Positions 50,794 to 62,630 of a stretch of DNA of 64,000 nucleotides are shown here, piece after piece. The stretch lies in NCBI RefSeq assembly GCF_029946005.1, contig NZ_JAQSDR010000038.1:62001-126000 (forward strand), read 5' to 3'. The stretch is from Aquabacterium sp. (GTDB lineage: Bacteria; Pseudomonadota; Gammaproteobacteria; Burkholderiales; Burkholderiaceae_C). Below the pieces are notes generated by a model, which did no database searches, had not been told where the DNA came from, and was given only the letters and a program-made list of their open reading frames with translations. The position numbers and the translations under genes were made by a program. How positions within the stretch are numbered: position 1 is the first letter of the stretch; the number at the start of each line of letters is the position of its first letter.

Positions 50794-51606
50794 ATGCCGC
50801 ACGCCGACCTGGAATTGCGTTTGCTGATGGAGGCGATCTACGCCAAATACAGCCATGACTTTCGCGATTACTCGGGCTCGTCGCAGCGGCGGCGCGTGCT
50901 GTACGCCTTGCAGCAACTGGAGTGCGACACGATCTCCACCCTGCAGTCCAAGGTGCTGCACGACCCCACGGCTTTTCAAAAGCTGCTGGACATCCTGACC
51001 ATCCCGTTCAGCGAGATGTTCCGCGACCCCAGCTACTTCCTGGCCTTGCGCCAGCACGTCATGCCCGTCTTGCGCACCTATCCTTCGCTGAAGGTGTGGA
51101 TTGCCGGGTGCAGCACCGGTGAAGAGGTCTACTCCATGGCCATCCTCTTGCGTGAGGAGGGCCTGCTGGAGCGCACCATGCTCTACGCCACCGACATCAA
51201 TCCGGCCTCGCTCGACAAGGCGCGCCAGGGCATCTTCCCGCTCGCCAATGTGCAGACCTTCACCGCCAACTACCAGGCTTCCGGGGGCACGGCGGCGTTT
51301 TCCGATTACTACACCGCGGCCTACAACGCCGTGAAGTTTGACCGCACGCTGGCCGACAACATCACCTTCGCCGACCACAGCCTGGCCACCGACCATGTGT
51401 TCTCCGAGATGCAGCTGGTGTGCTGTCGCAATGTGCTGATCTACTTCAAGCGCAACCTGCAGGACCGGGCCCTGGGGCTGTTCCACGAATCCCTGTGCCA
51501 CCGGGGCTTCCTGGGCCTGGGCTCGAAGGAGAGCCTGGACTTCTCCTCGTTCGCCGACCGGTTTGACCCTGTGGTCAAGTCCGAGCGTGTGTTTCGCAAA
51601 CGTTGA
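50794..51606 (+). CDS. CheR-type methyltransferase
   Basis: A 270-residue SAM-dependent glutamate methyltransferase. The helical CheR_N part (1-75) is followed by the SAM site WIAGCSTGEEVYSMA (about 104-118), the ATDINPASLDKARQGIF loop and CCRNVLIYF near residue 216. In chemotaxis it methylates receptors, but no receptor gene is present. The kinase beside it has no MCP-like domain, so the methylated target may be the kinase's coiled coil or a distant receptor. Confidence 0.9.
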   Translation: MPHADLELRLLMEAIYAKYSHDFRDYSGSSQRRRVLYALQQLECDTISTLQSKVLHDPTAFQKLLDILTIPFSEMFRDPSYFLALRQHVMPVLRTYPSLKVWIAGCSTGEEVYSMAILLREEGLLERTMLYATDINPASLDKARQGIFPLANVQTFTANYQASGGTAAFSDYYTAAYNAVKFDRTLADNITFADHSLATDHVFSEMQLVCCRNVLIYFKRNLQDRALGLFHESLCHRGFLGLGSKESLDFSSFADRFDPVVKSERVFRKR

Positions 51607-51619
51607 CGAGGCCTCCCCC

Positions 51620-52231
51620 ATGTCACCACACACCAGCACCTCGTTCGATCCTGAATCACAGGCCATCCAGGCCGTGGTCATCGGGGCGTCGGCGGGGGGC
51701 GTTGATGCCCTGATGAAGGTGTTGGTGGGCTTGCCCGCTTCGTTCAGCCTGCCCATCATGGTGGTGTTGCACCTGCCCGAGGACAAGCCCAGCCGCCTCC
51801 CCGAGATCCTGGCTTACCGTCTGCAGCTTCGCGTGTGCGAGGCCATGGACAAACAGCCCATCGAGCCCGGCACGGTGTACGTGGCGCCCACCGGCTACCA
51901 CCTGTCGGTCGAGGCTGACCTCAGCCTGTCGCTCAGTGGCGAAGCCCCCGTCAACTACTCGCGGCCCTCCATCGACGTGCTGATGAACTCGGCTGCGGAC
52001 GCTTATGGGGTGGGCCTGGTCGGGATCTTGCTGACGGGTGCCAATCACGATGGTGCGCAAGGCATGGCCCGCATCAAGGCGCGTGGCGGCTGGACGGTGG
52101 TGCAAAACCCCGAGCAGGCGCAGTCCAACACCATGCCTTTGGCGGCCATCCGAATGCGGGCGCCCGACCTGATCCTGTCGCTGGGCGACATCCACGCATT
52201 GCTGCTCAAACTGGGACGAGAAAAATCATGA
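51620..52231 (+). CDS. CheB-type methylesterase domain protein
   Basis: A 203-residue stand-alone CheB methylesterase without the usual receiver domain. The triad Ser24 (IGASAGGVDAL), His51 (VVLHLP) and Asp144 (LLTGANHDGAQGM) has the same spacing as in enteric CheB. It should remove methyl groups set by the preceding CheR. It overlaps the downstream receiver-kinase by ATGA, so a separate protein may supply the missing phospho-switch. Confidence 0.92.
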   Translation: MSPHTSTSFDPESQAIQAVVIGASAGGVDALMKVLVGLPASFSLPIMVVLHLPEDKPSRLPEILAYRLQLRVCEAMDKQPIEPGTVYVAPTGYHLSVEADLSLSLSGEAPVNYSRPSIDVLMNSAADAYGVGLVGILLTGANHDGAQGMARIKARGGWTVVQNPEQAQSNTMPLAAIRMRAPDLILSLGDIHALLLKLGREKS

Positions 52232-53403
52232 CCGACGACCGCACCAAGCTGTTGATCGTGGACGACCTGCCGGAAAACCTGCTGGCCCTGAAGTCCCTGA
52301 TCCAGCACGAAGACCACCTGGTTTACCAAGCCTCGTCCGGCGAGGAGGCGCTGGGGTTGTTGCTGGAACACGAGTTCGCGCTGGCCATCCTGGATGTGCA
52401 GATGCCGGGCATGACCGGCTTCGAGCTGGCCGAGTTGATGCGCGGCACCGAGAAGACGCGGCACATCCCGATTGTCTTCGTGACCGCCGCCAACCGAGAC
52501 CGCAGCCACGCTTTCAAAGGCTACGAGAACGGCGCGGTGGATTTTCTGTACAAGCCGCTGGACAGTTGCGCGGTCAAGAGCAAGGTCAGCGTGTTCGTGG
52601 ACCTGTACCGCCAGCGCCAGCAGATGCAGCGGCAAGTCGAAGCGCTGGAGGACAGTCGCCGGCAGCAGCATGCCCTGTTGACCGAGTTGCAGGCCACCAA
52701 GGTGGATTTGCAGAACGCCTTGCAGATGCGCGACGACTTCATGTCCCTGGTGGCGCACGAGTTGCGCACGCCTTTGAGTGCCTTGTCCATCGACATCCAG
52801 GTGCGCCAGAAGCACCTTGAAAAAGGCAACGCGGATTTCTTCGGCCCGCAACAGCTGTCGGGCATGTTCGCCAAGTACCGGCGCCAATCACAGAGCATGA
52901 CGCGGCTGATCGAGGACATGCTTGATGTCTCACGCATCCGCAATGGCAAGCTGTCCATCCGGCCCTCGACCACGGACTTGTCCCGCTTGCTGGAGCGCCT
53001 GGTCGGCGATTTTCCCAGGCTGGACAGTGACAGCGTGATCAGTCTGAACATCCAGCCGGGCGTGACGGGGTTCTGGGACGAGTTCCGCATCGAACAGGTC
53101 GTCATCAACCTGTTGAGCAATGCCTTGCGCTATGGCGCCGGCAAGCCGGTGGAGGTGACCCTCACGGCCTCGTCCGGGGTGGCGCGCATCGAGGTGCGCG
53201 ACTGGGGCATCGGCATCGCGCCAGACGCTCAGCGGCGCATCTTTGAGCAGTTCGTGCGCGTGGCCGACCCCGTCGCCCACACCGGGCTGGGCTTGGGCTT
53301 GTACATCACGCAGCAGCTGGTCGAGGCGCATGGGGGCAGCATCAGCGTGCAAAGCCAGCTGGGCGAGGGTTCGGTGTTCGTCGTCACACTGCCTTTGGCG
53401 TGA
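52228..53403 (+). CDS. Receiver - histidine kinase fusion
   Basis: A 391-residue protein with an N-terminal receiver (about 5-125; Asp56 in LAILDVQMPGMTG), a short coiled coil, HisKA with His177 in VAHELRTPLSALS, and an ATPase domain (about 275-390; NLLSNALRYG, DWGIGI, GLGLGLYIT). The order receiver-first makes the kinase depend on phosphorylation from another protein, most likely the giant kinase in the same operon. Its 3' end overlaps the convergent exporter gene by 20 bases. Confidence 0.92.
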   Translation: MTDDRTKLLIVDDLPENLLALKSLIQHEDHLVYQASSGEEALGLLLEHEFALAILDVQMPGMTGFELAELMRGTEKTRHIPIVFVTAANRDRSHAFKGYENGAVDFLYKPLDSCAVKSKVSVFVDLYRQRQQMQRQVEALEDSRRQQHALLTELQATKVDLQNALQMRDDFMSLVAHELRTPLSALSIDIQVRQKHLEKGNADFFGPQQLSGMFAKYRRQSQSMTRLIEDMLDVSRIRNGKLSIRPSTTDLSRLLERLVGDFPRLDSDSVISLNIQPGVTGFWDEFRIEQVVINLLSNALRYGAGKPVEVTLTASSGVARIEVRDWGIGIAPDAQRRIFEQFVRVADPVAHTGLGLGLYITQQLVEAHGGSISVQSQLGEGSVFVVTLPLA

Positions 53404-55567
53404 GCAGTGGCGTCACGTTCGCGTGGCCCGAGTCGGGATCGCCATCCGGCTGGGTTTGCTCCACCAGCTTGATCAGCTTGCCGCCCGACAGCACGTGGAT
53501 CTCATCGCCTTCGCTGAGGCTGTGTTGGCGGTGCGTGATGATGAAGCGGCCGCAGCCCAGGTGGTTGATGGCCTCTTGCACATGGCGTTCGGTCTCGAAG
53601 TCCAGGTGGCTGGTGTACTCGTCCAGCAGTAAAAAGCGCGGCTGCTTGTACAGGGCGCGCGCGAGCAGCATGCGCTGCTTCTGCCCGCCCGACAGCGTGG
53701 CGCCCATGCCGCCCACCAGGGTCTGATAGTCCATGGGCATGCGCAGGATGTCTTCGTGGATGCAGGCTTGCCGCGCGGCCAGCATCACCTTTTCGGGCGT
53801 GGCCTCGGTGTCGTTCATGGCGATGTTGTCGTAGATCGAGCAGGTGAACAACTGGTCGTCCTGGAACACGGTGCCCAGCACCGAGCGGAAGGCCTCGGAG
53901 CCGATGCGGCTGATGGACACCCCATTGACCAGCACCTCACCCGATTCAGGCGTGACCTGGCCCGACAGCACCTTCAACAAGGTGGACTTGCCGCAGCCCG
54001 AAGGGCCCACCACCGCGATCGCCTGGCCACTGTGCAGGGTCATGCTGATGTCGTCCAGCACCGGCGCTTCACCCATCGCGTAGCGGAAGGTGACGTTGCG
54101 CAGCGACAAGGTCATCGGGCCATCGGTCTTCAAGGAGGCCTCGGCTTGGGCGGGCGAGGGCGGCTCGGGTTCGGTCAGCACGATGTCGGCCAGGCGCTCG
54201 CCTTGCAGCTTGAGCAGGCGCAGGTTGATGACACGCTCCAGCAGCTCGGAGGCGCGTTGCAGGAACTGGCTTTTGTAGGCCAGAAAGGCCACCAGCATGC
54301 CGATGGAGAACTGCTCGTCCAGGATCATGCGCGCGGCCAGGTAGATCACCAGCGACTGCTCCACCGCGCTGATCAGGCCGTTGACGCCCTGGTACAGCAG
54401 GCTGATGCGTTGCTGCTTGACCGAGGCGTTGACCATGGCCACCTGCTGGTTCATCCAGCCACCCACGCGCCAGCCCGGCTTGGCGAAGAACTTGATGGCG
54501 GCCACACCGCGCAGGGTCTCCAGCAAATAGGTTTGCGCATTGGCCTCGCGCACGATGGTTTCTTCGGTTGCTTGCCGGTAGGGCTTGAAGACGGCAAAGC
54601 GCACGATGGCCTGCAGCACGGCCACGGCCAGCACCACCATGGCCATCGTGGGGCTGTAAAAGAACATCAGGCCCAGCGTGATCAGGCTGACCGCGCCATC
54701 CAGCACCACTTCGACCAGGTGGTTGGTGATGGTGTCCTGGATGGTGTGGACGGAGCCGAAGCGCGACAGCACATCGCCCGTGTGGCGCTTGTCAAAATAG
54801 GCCAGCGGCAGCTTGAGCATGTAGCGGAACACATTGGCGCTCGACGACACGCGCCAGGACAGGCTGGCCCCCAGCACGATCCAGGTGCGCACCAGGCGCG
54901 TGCCCAGCGACATCACTGCCAGCAGGAAGATGCCGATGGCCAGCACGGCCAGCAGCGGTGCATCGCGCGTGACCACCACGTCGTCGATGATCCACTGGCT
55001 GAGCATGGGCATGAGGATGCCGAACACCTCCAGCACGATGGACAGCAGCGCCATCTGGCCGAAGGCGCGCCACAGGCCACGCTGGCCGGTGAACAACAGG
55101 CGCAAGTCAAACGGCGTCTTCTCTTGCTTCTTCTCGAAGCTGGTGCTGGGCGACAGCTCCAGTGCCACGCCAGTGAAGTGCGGGCTGGCTTCCTTGAGGG
55201 TGAGGGTGCGCTCGCCCAGGGCTGGGTCGAGGATGGTGATGCGTTGCGAATCGGCCTTGGTCAGCACCACGAAGTGGTTCAGGTTCCAGTGCAGCAGGCA
55301 GGGCGTTTGCAGTTGCGGCAGCTCGTCCATCTCCAGGCGCACGGCGCGGTTGGCAAAGCCCAGGTGCTCGGCGATGTTCATCAGGCGGGCCAAGGTGGCA
55401 CCGCGCGATGACAGCTCGAAGCGGCGCCGCAGAGTCAGCAGGTCGGTCTCGTGGCCGTGCGCGCTGGCGACCATGGCCAGGCAGGCCAGGCCGCACTCGG
55501 CCGCTTCCGATTGCAGGATCAGTGGCGTTGACTTGCGCGGCCACAGGGAAAGCAGATTCGTGCTCAT
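53384..55567 (-). CDS. C39-peptidase ABC exporter for double-glycine peptides
   Basis: A 727-residue exporter. The N-terminal C39 peptidase has Cys25 (AAECGLACLAMV), His98 (LNHFVVL) and Asp114 (ILDPALGE), all needed to cut leaders after Gly-Gly. Then come six membrane helices (about 160-440), and an ABC ATPase with GPSGCGKST, LSGGQKQR and LLLDEYTSHLD. It belongs to the CvaB/bacteriocin exporter group. It forms one operon with the adaptor and TolC genes; its natural substrate is likely the peptide at 58440. It starts within the adaptor's stop codon. Confidence 0.93.
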   Translation of the reverse strand: MSTNLLSLWPRKSTPLILQSEAAECGLACLAMVASAHGHETDLLTLRRRFELSSRGATLARLMNIAEHLGFANRAVRLEMDELPQLQTPCLLHWNLNHFVVLTKADSQRITILDPALGERTLTLKEASPHFTGVALELSPSTSFEKKQEKTPFDLRLLFTGQRGLWRAFGQMALLSIVLEVFGILMPMLSQWIIDDVVVTRDAPLLAVLAIGIFLLAVMSLGTRLVRTWIVLGASLSWRVSSSANVFRYMLKLPLAYFDKRHTGDVLSRFGSVHTIQDTITNHLVEVVLDGAVSLITLGLMFFYSPTMAMVVLAVAVLQAIVRFAVFKPYRQATEETIVREANAQTYLLETLRGVAAIKFFAKPGWRVGGWMNQQVAMVNASVKQQRISLLYQGVNGLISAVEQSLVIYLAARMILDEQFSIGMLVAFLAYKSQFLQRASELLERVINLRLLKLQGERLADIVLTEPEPPSPAQAEASLKTDGPMTLSLRNVTFRYAMGEAPVLDDISMTLHSGQAIAVVGPSGCGKSTLLKVLSGQVTPESGEVLVNGVSISRIGSEAFRSVLGTVFQDDQLFTCSIYDNIAMNDTEATPEKVMLAARQACIHEDILRMPMDYQTLVGGMGATLSGGQKQRMLLARALYKQPRFLLLDEYTSHLDFETERHVQEAINHLGCGRFIITHRQHSLSEGDEIHVLSGGKLIKLVEQTQPDGDPDSGHANVTPLLTPKAV

Positions 55568-56823
55568 CAGAGTTTTCCGCTGAAGGCGAAGAGGGGGTCG
55601 AGCATCCAGCGGATCAGGCGGCGTCGGTCGATTTCAATGTCGGCCGTGAGCGTGTGGCCTGGCCGCAGGGCGATGTCGGTGCCATAGGCCCGCACCTTGG
55701 GCTGGTCCAGGGCCACGCGCACGATGAAGACCGCGCGTCGGTCGGTGCCGCCTTGGGGGTTGCCGCTGGCCATGGGCACGTCGGTCTGCGACACGCTGCG
55801 CACCGTGCCCTGGTACTGGCCAAAGCGCTGGTAAGGAAAGGCGTCGTAGCTGATGCGCACGCGCTGGCCCGCCTTGATGAAGCCGACCGAGGTGCTGGGC
55901 AGGTAGAGCGTGGCCTCCAAGGCCGACCGCGTCGGCACGATGGAAGCCAGGGCGGTGTTGGCGTTGACGCTTTGGCCCGGCGTGGCCAGCAGGCCCGAGA
56001 CGATGCCATCGATCGGCGCCTTCAGCAGTACCTGGCGCGCGCCATGGCGTTGCACTTCTTCCTGCTGCAGGCTGAGCAGATCGCGGCCCAGGCTGGCCTG
56101 GTCAATGCGGTGCTGGGCCTGCAGGCGTTGGCGCTCGTCCTGCGATGCGGCCAAGTCGCCTTCCGCCGCGCTGCGCTGGCGCTTCAAGGTTTGCAGCCGC
56201 GCGGTCTGGTCCAGCAGCAACTGGCGTTGCTGCTCGTACTGCAGGTCGGAGATGATGCGTTCGTCCAGCAGCGGCTTGAACTGGTCCACCAGCTTGCGGG
56301 CCGAGGCGATCTGCTGCTCTTGCAGCTGGGCCTCCTCGCGCAGGGTCAGCAGGTCGCGGCGACTTTGGGCGATACGTTGGTCCAGCGCGGCCAGGGACGC
56401 GGTACTGGCCTGGGCCTGGCCTTCGGCCTGGTTGCGCATCTGGCTGCGCTGGCCTTCCAGGTTCTTTTGCAACAGCGCTTGCGTGCTGCCCGCGTCGCTG
56501 AAGCGTTCGTTGCTGATCTCGGCGATCACGTCGCCCGCCTTGACGGCCTGGCCTTCGGTGACCAGCACGCGCTGGACGATGCCGGGCTCCAGGGGGACGA
56601 CCATGGCCACGCCATCGCGGGGCTGCACCACGCCTTGCACGCGCTCCTTCTTGGTGTAGTGACCAAAGACCAGCACCGCCAGCACCAATGCGGCCAGGCA
56701 CAGGAAGAAGACAGTGAGGCGGCCAGCACCCACGGGGCGGATGTCGATGGAGGGGCCGGACGAGGTGTCTGAACGCGCGTCCAGAACCTCCTGGCGGAAC
56801 AGGGATTGGGCAGGGGTGCTCAT
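55567..56823 (-). CDS. HlyD/CvaA-type membrane fusion protein
   Basis: A 418-residue adaptor with a cytoplasmic start, one membrane helix (about 35-55; VFFLCLAALVLAVLVFGHY), a first lipoyl half-motif (GVVQPRDGVAMVVPLEPGIVQRV), a long coiled-coil hairpin (about 115-250), the second lipoyl half (VLLKAPIDGIVSGL) and a beta-barrel end. It bridges the C39 ABC exporter and TolC. It overlaps the TolC-like gene by four bases and the exporter gene by one, so all three are translated together. Confidence 0.92.
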   Translation of the reverse strand: MSTPAQSLFRQEVLDARSDTSSGPSIDIRPVGAGRLTVFFLCLAALVLAVLVFGHYTKKERVQGVVQPRDGVAMVVPLEPGIVQRVLVTEGQAVKAGDVIAEISNERFSDAGSTQALLQKNLEGQRSQMRNQAEGQAQASTASLAALDQRIAQSRRDLLTLREEAQLQEQQIASARKLVDQFKPLLDERIISDLQYEQQRQLLLDQTARLQTLKRQRSAAEGDLAASQDERQRLQAQHRIDQASLGRDLLSLQQEEVQRHGARQVLLKAPIDGIVSGLLATPGQSVNANTALASIVPTRSALEATLYLPSTSVGFIKAGQRVRISYDAFPYQRFGQYQGTVRSVSQTDVPMASGNPQGGTDRRAVFIVRVALDQPKVRAYGTDIALRPGHTLTADIEIDRRRLIRWMLDPLFAFSGKL

Positions 56824-58358
56824 GGCGTGCTCTCTGCCAGCAAGGGCAAGGGGGCGGTGTCAAAGAGGGGCATCAAGGGGGCAAGGTGGTCGGCATCCAG
56901 CTGGTCCAGCAGCGACAGGATGGTGACTTGCGCGGCCAGCGCGTTGACGCGCGCGCTGACCAGGCTTTGCCGTGCGGTGTAGATCTGCTGCTGGGCGTTG
57001 AGCAGGTCGAGGTTGGTGCGCAGGCCGGCCACGAAGGCTTTGCGCAGCGCGTCGTACGTGGCCGAGGCGGTTTGCTCGACCTGGCGCTGCAGGCTGACCA
57101 CCTGGCGGGCCTGAGACAAGGTTTGGTAGGCATCGCGCAGGCTCGATTCGACCTGGGCCTGGGCTTCATCGCGGCGGGCTTCGGCCTGGATCAGCAGGGC
57201 GGCGGATTCGCGGGTGCGGCCTTGCTGCAAGCCACCTGTGAACAAGGCCCAGTTCATCTGCACGCCGATGGCACGCTCCCGTGTGGTCTGACGTTGGCTG
57301 AAGCCGTCCAGTTGGGGCACCTCACGGACCAGGCTGGTGCTGGCCACGGCATCGACCGTGGGCTGCCAGCGTTCGGCGGTGCGGGCCTGGTCGGTGGCGG
57401 TGGCGGCCTTGACTTGGGCGAGGGCGTCACGCAACGGGGGGTGGCGGCTGGGGGCCAGCAGCAAGGCCTCGTCCAACGATGACACGGCGGTCGGCAGGTC
57501 CGGACTGTGTTCGTTCAAGCCGGTGGCCAGCGTCACCGCTTGGTGGCTGAGCCGTTCCAGCGTCAGCTTCTGGGTGGCCAGGCGGGTGTCCAGGTCCTGG
57601 ACCGCGACACGGCTCTGGTCGATGCGGGTGCGCGTTTCCAGCACATCCAGGATGGTGCCCGCACCTGCTTGCAGGCGCCGGTCGTTGATGCGCCATTGCT
57701 CTTGCAGCAGATCCTGCTGGGCCAGCGTGAGGCGGCGTTGTTCGGCCGCTTCGATGGCCATGAGGAAGGCCATGCTCAGTTCGCGGGCCACGTTGGTCCG
57801 GCTTCCTCGCGCCTGCCATTGCGCCTGTTCGGCTTGAGCGGCCTGGGCCTGGGCGGTGGCCTGGTCGGCCGCGCGCCACAGCGGCAAGGTGGCCGAGATC
57901 GACAAGGCCGTGGCGGGCGTGTTCACCGTGGTGTCGTTGATCTGCTGGCGGCGCCGACTGGCACTGGCGCTGGCATCGGCCCGGGGCATCCAGGCGGTGG
58001 CCCAGGCTTGTTGGCTCAGGGCTTGAGCGGCCTGCGCGCCGGCGTCAAAGGCGCGGTTGGCGGCCGCTTGCTGGTCGGCCGCCAGCAGCATCTGGGGCCA
58101 GGGCGTGGCGCCTTGGTCGCCTGCAGCTGGCGTTGGTTTTGTCCCATGACGTGAGGTGGTCGGCTGCGGATCTTTCAAGGTGCTCAGGGACGTGGACCAG
58201 TGCAACGCCAAGGAGCCGGAGGCCAGGGCCGGCAGCGAGGTGAGCAGCAGGCTCAGCGCCATGGCGAGTCGGCCCACGAGGGCTTGGCATGCAGGGCCAA
58301 GCCACCGAGGTTCATCGCGGAGAAGGGGTGACACGGTGTGCAGGCGAGAGGAAGGCAT
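56820..58358 (-). CDS. TolC-family outer membrane channel
   Basis: A 512-residue protein with a signal peptide (hydrophobic LAMALSLLLTSLPALAS, cleavage near 47), a low-complexity linker, and then paired OEP repeats with long helices (about 90-280 and 310-490). ALSQQAWATAW, the ATILDVLETRTRID-type region and the LNAQQQIYTARQ region mark the two TolC halves. The N-terminus is somewhat long, so a later start is possible. It is the dedicated outer-membrane part of the peptide exporter. No separate promoter is seen between the terminator at 58387 and its start. Confidence 0.88.
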   Translation of the reverse strand: MPSSRLHTVSPLLRDEPRWLGPACQALVGRLAMALSLLLTSLPALASGSLALHWSTSLSTLKDPQPTTSRHGTKPTPAAGDQGATPWPQMLLAADQQAAANRAFDAGAQAAQALSQQAWATAWMPRADASASASRRRQQINDTTVNTPATALSISATLPLWRAADQATAQAQAAQAEQAQWQARGSRTNVARELSMAFLMAIEAAEQRRLTLAQQDLLQEQWRINDRRLQAGAGTILDVLETRTRIDQSRVAVQDLDTRLATQKLTLERLSHQAVTLATGLNEHSPDLPTAVSSLDEALLLAPSRHPPLRDALAQVKAATATDQARTAERWQPTVDAVASTSLVREVPQLDGFSQRQTTRERAIGVQMNWALFTGGLQQGRTRESAALLIQAEARRDEAQAQVESSLRDAYQTLSQARQVVSLQRQVEQTASATYDALRKAFVAGLRTNLDLLNAQQQIYTARQSLVSARVNALAAQVTILSLLDQLDADHLAPLMPLFDTAPLPLLAESTP

Positions 58359-58386: not shown

Positions 58387-58423
58387 AAAAACCCGCCTGG
58401 CTGCGACGGCCGGGCGGGTTTTT
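58387..58423 (-). terminator. Rho-independent terminator/attenuator between peptide and exporter genes
   Basis: A-run 58385-58391 and CCCGCC (58392-58397) pair with GGCGGG (58413-58418) and TTTTT (58419-58423); with further G-C and G-U pairs the stem is nearly 17 bases. On the minus strand the stem is followed by a run of seven T residues. It starts 16 bases after the peptide stop codon and sits before the TolC gene, so most transcripts should end here and the exporter would be made by read-through. Confidence 0.85.
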
Positions 58424-58439: not shown

Positions 58440-58619
58440 TCAGGGCGCAGCCTTCTTCGTCACGTAAGGGATCTTCGTGGTCGAGAACAAGTTGATCGCG
58501 TAAATGCCAGCATTGATCAGGGGAACGCCATACGAGTTGTACTCGGCGCGGTGGATCGCGTCGATGAGGCTTTCGCCGCCGCTGACTTGGGACACTTCCT
58601 GGGTGCTCAAAACTTTCAT
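58440..58619 (-). CDS. Double-glycine-leader peptide, microcin-like or signalling, secreted
   Basis: A 59-residue gene with an AAGGA ribosome site seven bases before its ATG. Residues 1-15 (MKVLSTQEVSQVSGG) are a clear double-glycine leader: hydrophobic at -12/-7/-4-type positions, Glu at -8, Gly-Gly at the cut. The 44-residue mature part begins ESLID, has no cysteine, only two glycines, net charge about +1 with three lysines near its end, and an amphipathic centre (YGVPLINAGIYAINLF). It precedes a complete C39 ABC/HlyD/TolC set, its likely exporter. I recognise no homologue and no immunity gene. A bacteriocin or a signal are both possible. Confidence 0.82.
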   Translation of the reverse strand: MKVLSTQEVSQVSGGESLIDAIHRAEYNSYGVPLINAGIYAINLFSTTKIPYVTKKAAP

Positions 58620-58642
58620 GTTTTTTCCTTGTTTCAATGGTT

Positions 58643-60800: not shown

Positions 60801-62630
60801 TCAGGCGGGCAGCGTAGCCCGGGGCAGGTGCAGGGCCAATGTCTGCGCCAGGTCTTGCGAGCGGAAGGGCTTGGACAACTGGCCATTCATGCCCGCGTCC
60901 CGGCAGCGGTCGCCGCAGAGCTCGGGGGCGTTGGCCGTCAGCGCCACGATGCTGATGGGGGTCGCGCCTTCCAGGCGTTCGCGGGCACGGATCTGCCGCG
61001 TGGCTTCATAGCCATCCAGCACGGGCATCTCGCAGTCCATGAGCACCAGGTCGGCCTGCTGGTCGGCCAGCCAGTCCACGGCCTCCCGGCCATTGACGAG
61101 CATGGTCACCCTGACACCCAGCAACTGCAGCTCGGCTTGCGCCACCAGGGCGTTCACCGGGTTGTCCTCCACCAGCAGCACGTGGGGTTCGGACCACGGG
61201 TCGGGCCAAGCGGTCTGGTCGGCGCCCGCCCCGTCGAGTGCCCCTGGCTGGCTGGTCCGCTCATCGTGAACGACCGGCAGGGGCAGATTGAAGGTGAAGA
61301 GCGAGCCCACGCCGACTTCGCTGCGGCAGTCCAGGTCGCCGCCCATGGCGCGGCACAGCTCGCGCGAAATGGCCAGGCCCAGGCCGGTGCCACCATAGCG
61401 GCGCTGGTAGGTGCCCTCCGCTTGGTGGAAGGCCTCGAAGACGCGGGCCTGCTCGTGAGAGGGGATGCCGATGCCGGTGTCCTGCACCTGGATGCGCACC
61501 TCGCCGCTGAGGGCGTCGCGCGTGGCGTGCAGGCGCACGAAGCCTTTGCTGGTGAACTTGAGGGCGTTGCCCAGCAGGTTGTGAAGCACCTGGCGGATGC
61601 GGACCGGGTCGCCCATGACGAATTCATCGCGGTCCAGCTCCAGCTGCACCCTCAAGGCCAGCCCGCTTTCGGCGGCACTCACGAAGGTGGCCTCTGTCAC
61701 CTCCTCCAGCAGGTCGCGCAGCTTGAAGGGGCGTTCGTGCAAAGGCAGGCGGCCGGCTTCCATGCTTGAAAAGTCCAGGATGTCATTGATGACGCTGACC
61801 AGGTGCTCGCCCGAGCTGCGCACCAAGTCCAGCCGGTGCACCGCCTGTGCATCCTGCTCGCGCTGACGCAGCAGGCGCACCAAGCCCAACATGCCATGCA
61901 GGGGGGTGCGCATTTCGTGGCTCATCGTGGCCAGGAAGCGCCCCTTGGTGTCGCTCAACATCTGGGCCTGCTTCAGAGCCTGGGCCTGGGCCTGGGCCAC
62001 CATCTCGCTTTGCAGCCGCAGCCGCAACAGTTCAATGATGCGCAGGTTGGAGCGGCGGGCCTCCATGATCAACGCCACCATCAAGCCGGAGATGGCCAGG
62101 GCGCAAAACCAGCCCAGGCCATCGTGCCGGGTGGAGGCGTACACGGCATTGGGCAGCAGGATCGGGATGATGAACAGGCCGGCGGTGATGAAATCGACAT
62201 GCAGCATGCAGGTGGCCAGGGCCGCCACCCCGATCAGCACACTGATGCTGACGATGGCGATGTCCAGCTGGTGAATGGGCGTGATGGCCCAGCCCAGGGC
62301 ACTCCACGCGATGCTGTCCAGCAGGGCCAGGAGGCGGTACACCTGCAGTTCGTGAGGGCCTGGCGCCCCGGGGATCGATCCGCGCAGGTGAGAATGCGCC
62401 ATGCGGGCGATGGAGATCAGCACGCGCGCGGCGAACCAGGCCGCCAGCAGTCGGTGAGGCACCTTGTCGTGCAGCACCGCGACCACCCCGATGGCCGTCA
62501 GCATGCCAAAGACCATGGAGAAGGACAGCCTCTCGTGCAGCGCCCGATGCCGACCCTCGGTGACGCGCGCCTCCAGCTCGGGGTCGGGTGCGGCGTTCTG
62601 AGCAGAGAAAGGCAGGACAGGGGACGACAT
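60801..62630 (-). CDS. Membrane hybrid histidine kinase
   Basis: A 609-residue kinase with about six N-terminal membrane helices (about 35-195), like the membrane modules of RpfC or 7TM-type kinases but without a recognised extracellular domain. HisKA carries His238 in ATMSHEMRTPLHGM; the ATPase domain has NLLGNALKF, DTGIGI and GTGLGLAIS; the receiver near 485-600 has LVLMDCEMPVLDG. The RpfC-like plan lacks an HPt domain. It is a single gene, and no matching response regulator is adjacent. Confidence 0.9.
   Translation of the reverse strand: MSSPVLPFSAQNAAPDPELEARVTEGRHRALHERLSFSMVFGMLTAIGVVAVLHDKVPHRLLAAWFAARVLISIARMAHSHLRGSIPGAPGPHELQVYRLLALLDSIAWSALGWAITPIHQLDIAIVSISVLIGVAALATCMLHVDFITAGLFIIPILLPNAVYASTRHDGLGWFCALAISGLMVALIMEARRSNLRIIELLRLRLQSEMVAQAQAQALKQAQMLSDTKGRFLATMSHEMRTPLHGMLGLVRLLRQREQDAQAVHRLDLVRSSGEHLVSVINDILDFSSMEAGRLPLHERPFKLRDLLEEVTEATFVSAAESGLALRVQLELDRDEFVMGDPVRIRQVLHNLLGNALKFTSKGFVRLHATRDALSGEVRIQVQDTGIGIPSHEQARVFEAFHQAEGTYQRRYGGTGLGLAISRELCRAMGGDLDCRSEVGVGSLFTFNLPLPVVHDERTSQPGALDGAGADQTAWPDPWSEPHVLLVEDNPVNALVAQAELQLLGVRVTMLVNGREAVDWLADQQADLVLMDCEMPVLDGYEATRQIRARERLEGATPISIVALTANAPELCGDRCRDAGMNGQLSKPFRSQDLAQTLALHLPRATLPA

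What the first reader, a model, noticed from the sequence alone, without database searches (positions are those of the whole stretch)
58440..58619. Undescribed double-glycine peptide with its own complete type I exporter
A 59-codon gene encodes a textbook double-glycine leader (15 residues ending VSGG) and a 44-residue mature peptide without cysteines. The next three genes encode the C39 peptidase-ABC exporter (triad Cys25/His98/Asp114), adaptor and TolC channel. The mature sequence is not Gly/Ser-rich like colicin V or the known class II microcins, and I recognise no family. This is the strongest candidate in the window for a new secreted peptide system.
Basis: partly seen in the sequence, partly recalled or inferred. 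Interest (0 to 1): 0.85.

Follow-up and report, generated by a model that had tools for sequence, protein, structure and literature searches.

The report
New exported peptide family in Aquabacterium
A small gene in an Aquabacterium genome encodes a conserved peptide of no family we could find, carrying the tag for cutting and export by the transporter encoded next to it; it looks like a new cargo of a known kind of export machine, apparently without the usual self-protection gene beside it, and what it does outside the cell is unknown.

Summary
Window 58440-58619 (-) is a 59-codon gene: a 15-residue double-glycine leader and a 44-residue cysteine-free mature part. TolC, HlyD and C39-ABC exporter genes follow on the same strand, with Cys25/His98/Asp114 present. 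The gene is real: 20 family genes in 18 of 42 same-genus genomes, none with a stop inside the match; mature-part omega 0.14-0.25. No Pfam, NCBIfam, PHROG or plasmid match at E 1; best PDB match E 0.083.

25 of 42 genomes have both such a leader and the exporter, 15 neither (partly circular). The peptide is probably its own transcription unit: a terminator-like hairpin precedes tolC, and five copies are divergent from tolC. It is not bound to the exporter: 6 of 20 copies lie elsewhere, and sister species carry other cargo behind like leaders.

No membrane-type immunity frame lies in the gaps at 10 of 11 exporter-adjacent loci, 8 of 11 if overlap with the peptide is allowed, so a defining feature of class II microcins is not met. 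I favour a self-directed extracellular peptide; an immunity-less bacteriocin is the main rival. Secretion and function are untested.

The parts
58575..58619 (-). Leader MKVLSTQEVSQVSGG: double-glycine leader with L at -12, V at -7, V at -4 and E at -8
   Evidence: -4/-7/-12 match the hydrophobic contacts described for LahT150 (PMC6363468, passages)
58443..58574 (-). Mature peptide, 44 residues, ESLIDAIHRAEYNSYGVPLINAGIYAINLFSTTKIPYVTKKAAP; core I-D-x-I-H-x-x-E-x-x-x-Y-G-x-P-L-x-N invariant in the 17-row alignment A3 (the diverged G020 gene, L102, is not in it and departs from the second half)
   Evidence: purifying selection
58626..58630 (-). Ribosome-site-like AAGGA upstream of the ATG
   Evidence: read
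58389..58421 (-). Intrinsic-terminator-like hairpin plus T run between the peptide gene and tolC
   Evidence: such hairpins follow 23 of 34 related peptide genes, against 2 of 34 upstream and 6 of 170 single-base shuffles; 0 of the 6 short-type copies not seen beside the exporter have one. One search lists the site too, without excess over its shuffles
56820..58358 (-). TolC-type outer membrane channel protein (P0004)
   Evidence: PF02321, E 1.3e-37
55567..56823 (-). HlyD-type periplasmic adaptor (P0003)
   Evidence: PF13437, E 6.5e-21
53384..55567 (-). C39 peptidase-ABC exporter (P0002)
   Evidence: PF03412 5.1e-34, PF00664 5.2e-35, PF00005 2.4e-33; aligned over residues 12-701 with 'bacteriocin transporter' structures such as 4ry2, E 1.5e-82; the best-scoring PDB rows are P-glycoprotein-type proteins, by the ABC core alone
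55142..55528 (-). C39 peptidase domain, residues 14-142, with C25, H98, D114

Best explanation
The gene makes a precursor whose leader docks in the C39 domain of the neighbouring exporter, is cut after Gly15, and whose 44-residue mature part leaves the cell through the ABC-HlyD-TolC channel. Outside, the unmodified peptide most likely serves the producer population itself, as a matrix/biofilm or signal-type peptide with a conserved partner, rather than as a classical microcin with a paired immunity gene. Shown by sequence: the gene, the leader, the exporter with its triad, co-occurrence across the genus, purifying selection, a terminator-like hairpin, no membrane-type immunity frame next to it in the window. 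Inferred: cleavage, secretion, lack of modification, and the self-directed role. I put the export step at about 0.85 and the self-directed role at about 0.45.
For: Leader residues match the C39 recognition positions. Exporter domains and triad are present. In 42 genus genomes 17 of 18 with this peptide family have the exporter (E 1e-100 or better), against 9 of 24 without it (Fisher 2.6e-4; genomes not independent); the one miss, G015, is 53% complete. In the own genome the leader profile finds only this gene clearly (E 6.8e-7; next 0.96 and 7.8, partial). Pooled omega of the mature part is 0.25 (short type, 10 genes) and 0.14 (long type, 9 genes). In the long type the mature part is more conserved than the exporter in 32 of 36 genome pairs. 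Of 11 exporter-adjacent family loci with both neighbours identified, 10 have no frame of 45 or more codons with a membrane-type stretch wholly inside the gaps of 9-371 bases; with frames overlapping the peptide or running into a neighbour allowed, 8 of 11, the window among them. A near analogue: EbfG double-glycine peptides serve biofilm formation in Synechococcus (PMC4997328, abstract).
Against: No secretion or phenotype data. In the short type, which includes the window, the mature part is more conserved than the exporter in only 1 of 21 pairs. Sister cargo peptides look partly bacteriocin-like: sub-threshold matches to MccV (E 0.11) and Bacteriocin_IIc (E 0.1), and tandem pairs. A non-membrane immunity protein, or one encoded elsewhere, is not excluded; the window span has 5 other frames of 45 or more codons, none membrane-type. 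Bacteroidetocins show that a toxin can lack immunity genes. No receptor gene is consistently linked. The structure model is of low confidence (mean pLDDT 67).
Confidence: 0.45

Rival explanations
1. Antibacterial peptide without a dedicated immunity gene, working like bacteroidetocins: exported by the C39 system and aimed at related bacteria, with producers protected by target changes or not at all.
For: Sizes agree: 15-residue leader and 42-residue mature peptide in bacteroidetocins, whose producers inhibit themselves and have no evident immunity protein (PMC6671954, passages), against 15 and 44 here. Exporter in only 26 of 42 genomes. Other cargo beside the same exporter type is diverse and partly bacteriocin-like.
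Against: No cysteines, net charge +1, and a helical moment no higher than in shuffles (611 of 2000 reach it). Purifying selection and close mature parts across species. Bacteroidetocin loci also carry a membrane protein and a thiol oxidoreductase gene; the window locus has none next to the peptide (names by eye).
Confidence: 0.35
2. Classical class II microcin whose immunity gene lies elsewhere in the genome or is unrecognised.
For: Leader, C39-ABC, adaptor and TolC are four of the five listed class II components (PMC10233263, passages).
Against: The immunity gene is typically immediately adjacent, often overlapping; no membrane-type frame in the gaps at 10 of 11 loci, 8 of 11 with overlaps allowed (L041 one same-strand frame, L042 and L043 frames antisense to the peptide). 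The mature part is 44 residues against 60-90 for known cores.
Confidence: 0.1
3. Chance open frame or decayed gene beside an unrelated exporter.
For: Short gene; leader-like strings can arise by chance.
Against: 20 family genes without a stop inside, omega well below 1, 0 leader hits in reversed sequence, co-occurrence with the exporter.
Confidence: 0.02

Closest known systems
Class II microcin systems (MccV and kin)
   Same: Double-glycine leader, C39-ABC exporter, adaptor, TolC; unmodified mature peptide likely
   Different: No adjacent membrane-type immunity frame in the window, shorter mature part, tolC in the cluster, probably a separate transcription unit, no Pfam MccV match
Bacteroidetocins (PMC6671954, passages)
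   Same: 15-residue leader, mature part of 42 against 44 residues, C39-ABC exporter, no immunity gene evident
   Different: Bacteroidetocins have four cysteines and linked thiol oxidoreductase and membrane protein genes; sequences not aligned here
EbfG peptides and PteB of Synechococcus elongatus (PMC4997328, abstract)
   Same: Small double-glycine proteins needing a C39 transporter; role in biofilm formation
   Different: Cyanobacterial; sequences not compared here; role of the Aquabacterium peptide unknown
Nap peptides of Neisseria gonorrhoeae (PMC11798529, passages)
   Same: Double-glycine peptides with a linked C39 protein; reported not to kill competitor species but to act on the producer (autolysis)
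   Different: Cationic, with a linked FapF-like export channel and a linked immunity-like gene (napI)
NHLP-type export (TIGR03796, best NCBIfam match of P0002)
   Same: Whole-length similarity of the exporter (477 bits)
   Different: Below the family cut-off of 853 bits; the leader is short, not of NHLP/Nif11 type (recalled)

Membership tests
C39/PCAT-exported double-glycine peptides | Short leader with hydrophobic -4, -7, -12 and GG/GA at the cut site | tested here: met
   V-4, V-7, L-12, GG; positions from PMC6363468
C39/PCAT-exported double-glycine peptides | Linked exporter with C39 catalytic residues | tested here: met
   C25, H98, D114; PF03412
C39/PCAT-exported double-glycine peptides | Cleavage after GG and secretion | not testable with these tools
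   Needs mass spectrometry
Class II microcin | Exporter, adaptor and TolC present | tested here: met
Class II microcin | Adjacent small immunity gene, usually a membrane protein | tested here: not met
   10 of 11 exporter-adjacent family loci, the window included, without such a frame in the gaps; 8 of 11 when overlaps are allowed. Non-membrane or distant immunity genes not tested
Class II microcin | Core of 60-90 residues | tested here: not met
   44 residues; range of the 10 known ones from PMC10233263
Class II microcin | Antibacterial activity | not testable with these tools
   No assay possible
Bacteroidetocin | Four cysteines; thiol oxidoreductase and membrane protein genes in the cluster | tested here: not met
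   No Cys; neighbours are TolC and, by eye, CorA, 233 bases away
Described peptide families (Pfam, NCBIfam, PHROGs, PDB sequences) | Profile or sequence match | tested here: not met
   0 families for P0001 at E 1. One long-type relative: TIGR03949 at E 0.041, 13.7 bits against a cut-off of 21.5, leader only, and NF038127 at E 0.063. PDB: 8 rows at E 0.083 to 0.54, formate/nitrite transporters and a saporin

The most novel reading that the evidence does not exclude
A secreted peptide family ('LIDAIH' peptides) so far seen only in Aquabacterium, without a linked immunity gene, kept under purifying selection and able to part from its exporter, that serves the producing community as matrix or signal: a non-antagonistic C39-exported peptide family of this lineage.
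Probability: 0.35. Interest if true: 0.65.

Novelty: new member of a known kind. Interest (0 to 1): 0.45.

Why it matters
Bioinformatic screens for double-glycine peptides have had little functional confirmation, and confirmed microcins outside Enterobacteriaceae are lacking, while some such peptides serve signalling or biofilms (PMC10233263, passages). This family comes with a conserved core, two subtypes, a complete exporter, a single recognised cargo in the window's genome, and species with and without it, so knock-out and supernatant tests are direct. If the role is self-directed it would weaken the habit of calling every such peptide a bacteriocin.

Tried and rejected
Leads that went nowhere. 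The conserved upstream string TTTAGGGGTATCTC as a regulon motif: one site in the genome, one in the backward control. Amphipathicity as evidence for a toxin: not above shuffles in the window peptide. AlphaFold model: mean pLDDT 67, one helix through leader and core, too weak for a fold search, so none was run. Plasmids: no match. Viral contigs: one match (L118), a 157-codon ORF beside what reads by eye as a phage portal gene, sharing IIDAIHKAEYN; it was found by a pattern taken from that motif, has no leader and no PHROG match; judged coincidence. Literature, seen as listings only unless named elsewhere: Aquabacterium with double-glycine, 0 papers; with bacteriocin, 41 papers, 15 listed, none on such a peptide by title or abstract start; any two of Aquabacterium, type I secretion and peptidase-containing ABC, 10 papers, 8 listed, none of the 8 naming Aquabacterium; any two of microcin, Burkholderiales and double-glycine, 63 papers, 15 listed; wider searches with 418, 57 and 197 papers, 25, 20 and 6 listed. 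Subscription papers are mostly not held.

Dropped rows. G003 (leader-only) and the leader-only second matches in G026 and G030 were not counted as family members. One search gave further weak rows (E up to 1) in the genus and outside it, not counted; its G013 row runs past the stop codon of that gene. In one search L093 (near copy of L094) was left out, so 34 of 35 peptide genes were scanned. One search left out second copies, G015 and G020. Four weak partial matches in other genera (E 0.014-0.046) were dropped. G002 counts as exporter-positive at 45% identity although it is a distant exporter with another leader.

Full report
What is there. The minus-strand ORF 58440-58619 encodes 59 residues. 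Fifteen form a leader with L-12, V-7, V-4 and GG, the contacts described for the C39 protease LahT150 (PMC6363468, passages seen). The 44-residue mature part has no cysteine, two glycines and net charge +1. Downstream on the same strand are TolC, HlyD and C39-ABC genes, with C25, H98 and D114 present. A terminator-like hairpin at 58389-58421 lies between the peptide gene and tolC; the simpler scan lists it too, but its 3 sites in the region do not exceed its shuffles (mean 2.0).

Is it a gene. The genus is Aquabacterium by 11 of the 16 record titles of relatives; the other five read Leptothrix, Comamonadaceae, Burkholderiales (two) and Proteobacteria. A profile search of the 42 genus genomes held gave a match in 19 at E 0.1 or better. 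One (G003) is leader-only, leaving 20 genes in 18 genomes, none with a stop inside the match. In 399 genomes drawn from the family, 7 matched at E 0.05 or better: three are of the genus and four are weak partial matches. In 399 genomes drawn from the order, only the own genome matched at E 0.001. The family falls into a short type (window; ESLIDAIHRAEYNSYGVPL) and a long type (ALDPELGLFKRTGIALIDAIHKNEWNTYGRPLYN) sharing a core, plus a diverged gene in G020. Pooled pairwise omega (Nei-Gojobori, not corrected for relatedness) is 0.25 for the short mature part (first 53 codons) and 0.18 for its leader over 10 genes; 0.14 and 0.51 for the long type over 9 genes.

Link to the exporter. The exporter is in 26 of 42 genomes at E 1e-100 or better. 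Of 18 genomes with the family, 17 have it; the exception G015 is 53% complete. Of 24 without the family, 9 have it (Fisher 2.6e-4). In these nine I found other double-glycine peptides: a leader matrix, trained on 12 leaders of this family, gave 35 hits in 54,931 starts over 40 loci and the window, 20 of this family and 15 others that cover eight of the nine, with 0 in reversed sequence; G002, the ninth, has one found with a looser pattern. In G003 the peptides lie at a contig end and the exporter at the start of another contig. A profile of leaders over the whole genus matched in 26 of 42 genomes; 25 have leader and exporter, 1 each alone, 15 neither (Fisher 2.5e-9). That last test is partly circular, because many seed leaders came from beside exporters, and the genomes are not independent. 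In the exporter tree the well supported small clades each carry one cargo type, with cargo labels set by me; 8 of 23 inner branches are unresolved and the long type sits on several of them. In the own genome this gene is the only clear leader hit.

Arrangement. Of the 20 genes, 11 lie beside the exporter: 6 in the window's orientation and 5 divergent from tolC. One more (G041) is probably adjacent across a contig break, 6 are elsewhere in a genome that has the exporter, and 2 (G015, G020) cannot be placed. Terminator-like hairpins follow 23 of 34 peptide genes, against 2 of 34 upstream regions and 6 of 170 single-base shuffles; none was found after the 6 short-type copies not seen beside the exporter. 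So the window's peptide is most likely its own transcript.

Immunity. In 11 exporter-adjacent family loci both neighbours were identified: TolC on one side; CorA, EamA, a hybrid kinase or TetR on the other, names by eye. Gaps, estimated from alignments, are 9-371 bases, and in 10 of 11 hold no complete frame of 45 or more codons with a membrane-type stretch; the exception is L041. With frames allowed to overlap the peptide or run into a neighbour, 8 of 11 have none, the window included; L042 and L043 gain frames antisense to the peptide. Non-membrane or distant immunity genes were not tested. The far-side neighbour changes even among the window's closest relatives. Class II microcins typically have the immunity gene immediately adjacent (PMC10233263, passages).

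What it does. Long-type mature parts are more conserved than the exporter in 32 of 36 genome pairs; short-type ones in only 1 of 21. The long-type result, the missing immunity frame, the loose linkage and the weak toxin-like physics lean me to a self-directed extracellular role, as for EbfG peptides (PMC4997328, abstract); the short-type result does not help it. Bacteroidetocins, toxins of like size without immunity genes (PMC6671954, passages), keep the antibacterial rival strong. Neither is tested.

Novelty. No match at E 1 in Pfam or NCBIfam, PHROGs or plasmids; best PDB match E 0.083; no paper in the held library names both Aquabacterium and double-glycine. The machine is of a known kind; the peptide family is new as far as these searches go.

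Noticed in passing
L091 7884-8320, L098 13282-13741: Tandem pairs of different double-glycine peptides; in L098 beside the same exporter type, in L091 at a contig end. Possible two-peptide systems.
   Followed up: partly
L092 13238-13450, L093 5121-5345, L094 6004-6228, L095 6425-6649, L096 13061-13240, L099 5020-5199, L097 4948-5127, L103 8830-9039, L104 5233-5427: Other cargo peptides behind a like leader beside the exporter in sister species; one type carries cysteines, one is glycine-rich and weakly MccV-like.
   Followed up: partly
L100 6489-6635: Beside a distant exporter (45% identity) in G002, a 48-residue double-glycine peptide with cysteines.
   Followed up: no
L037 and L039, beside the peptide: These distal short-type copies lie next to a protein that reads by eye as an EAL-domain (c-di-GMP) protein, near a metH-like and a GNAT-like gene.
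   Followed up: no
L118 4836-5309: A viral-contig ORF near a portal-like gene contains IIDAIHKAEYN, matching the peptide core; no leader and no PHROG match, probably coincidence.
   Followed up: partly
window 51563-53403 and 60801-62630: CheB-like, histidine kinase and hybrid kinase genes (names by eye) flank the system and are found around it in close relatives, but not at the other exporter loci fetched.
   Followed up: partly
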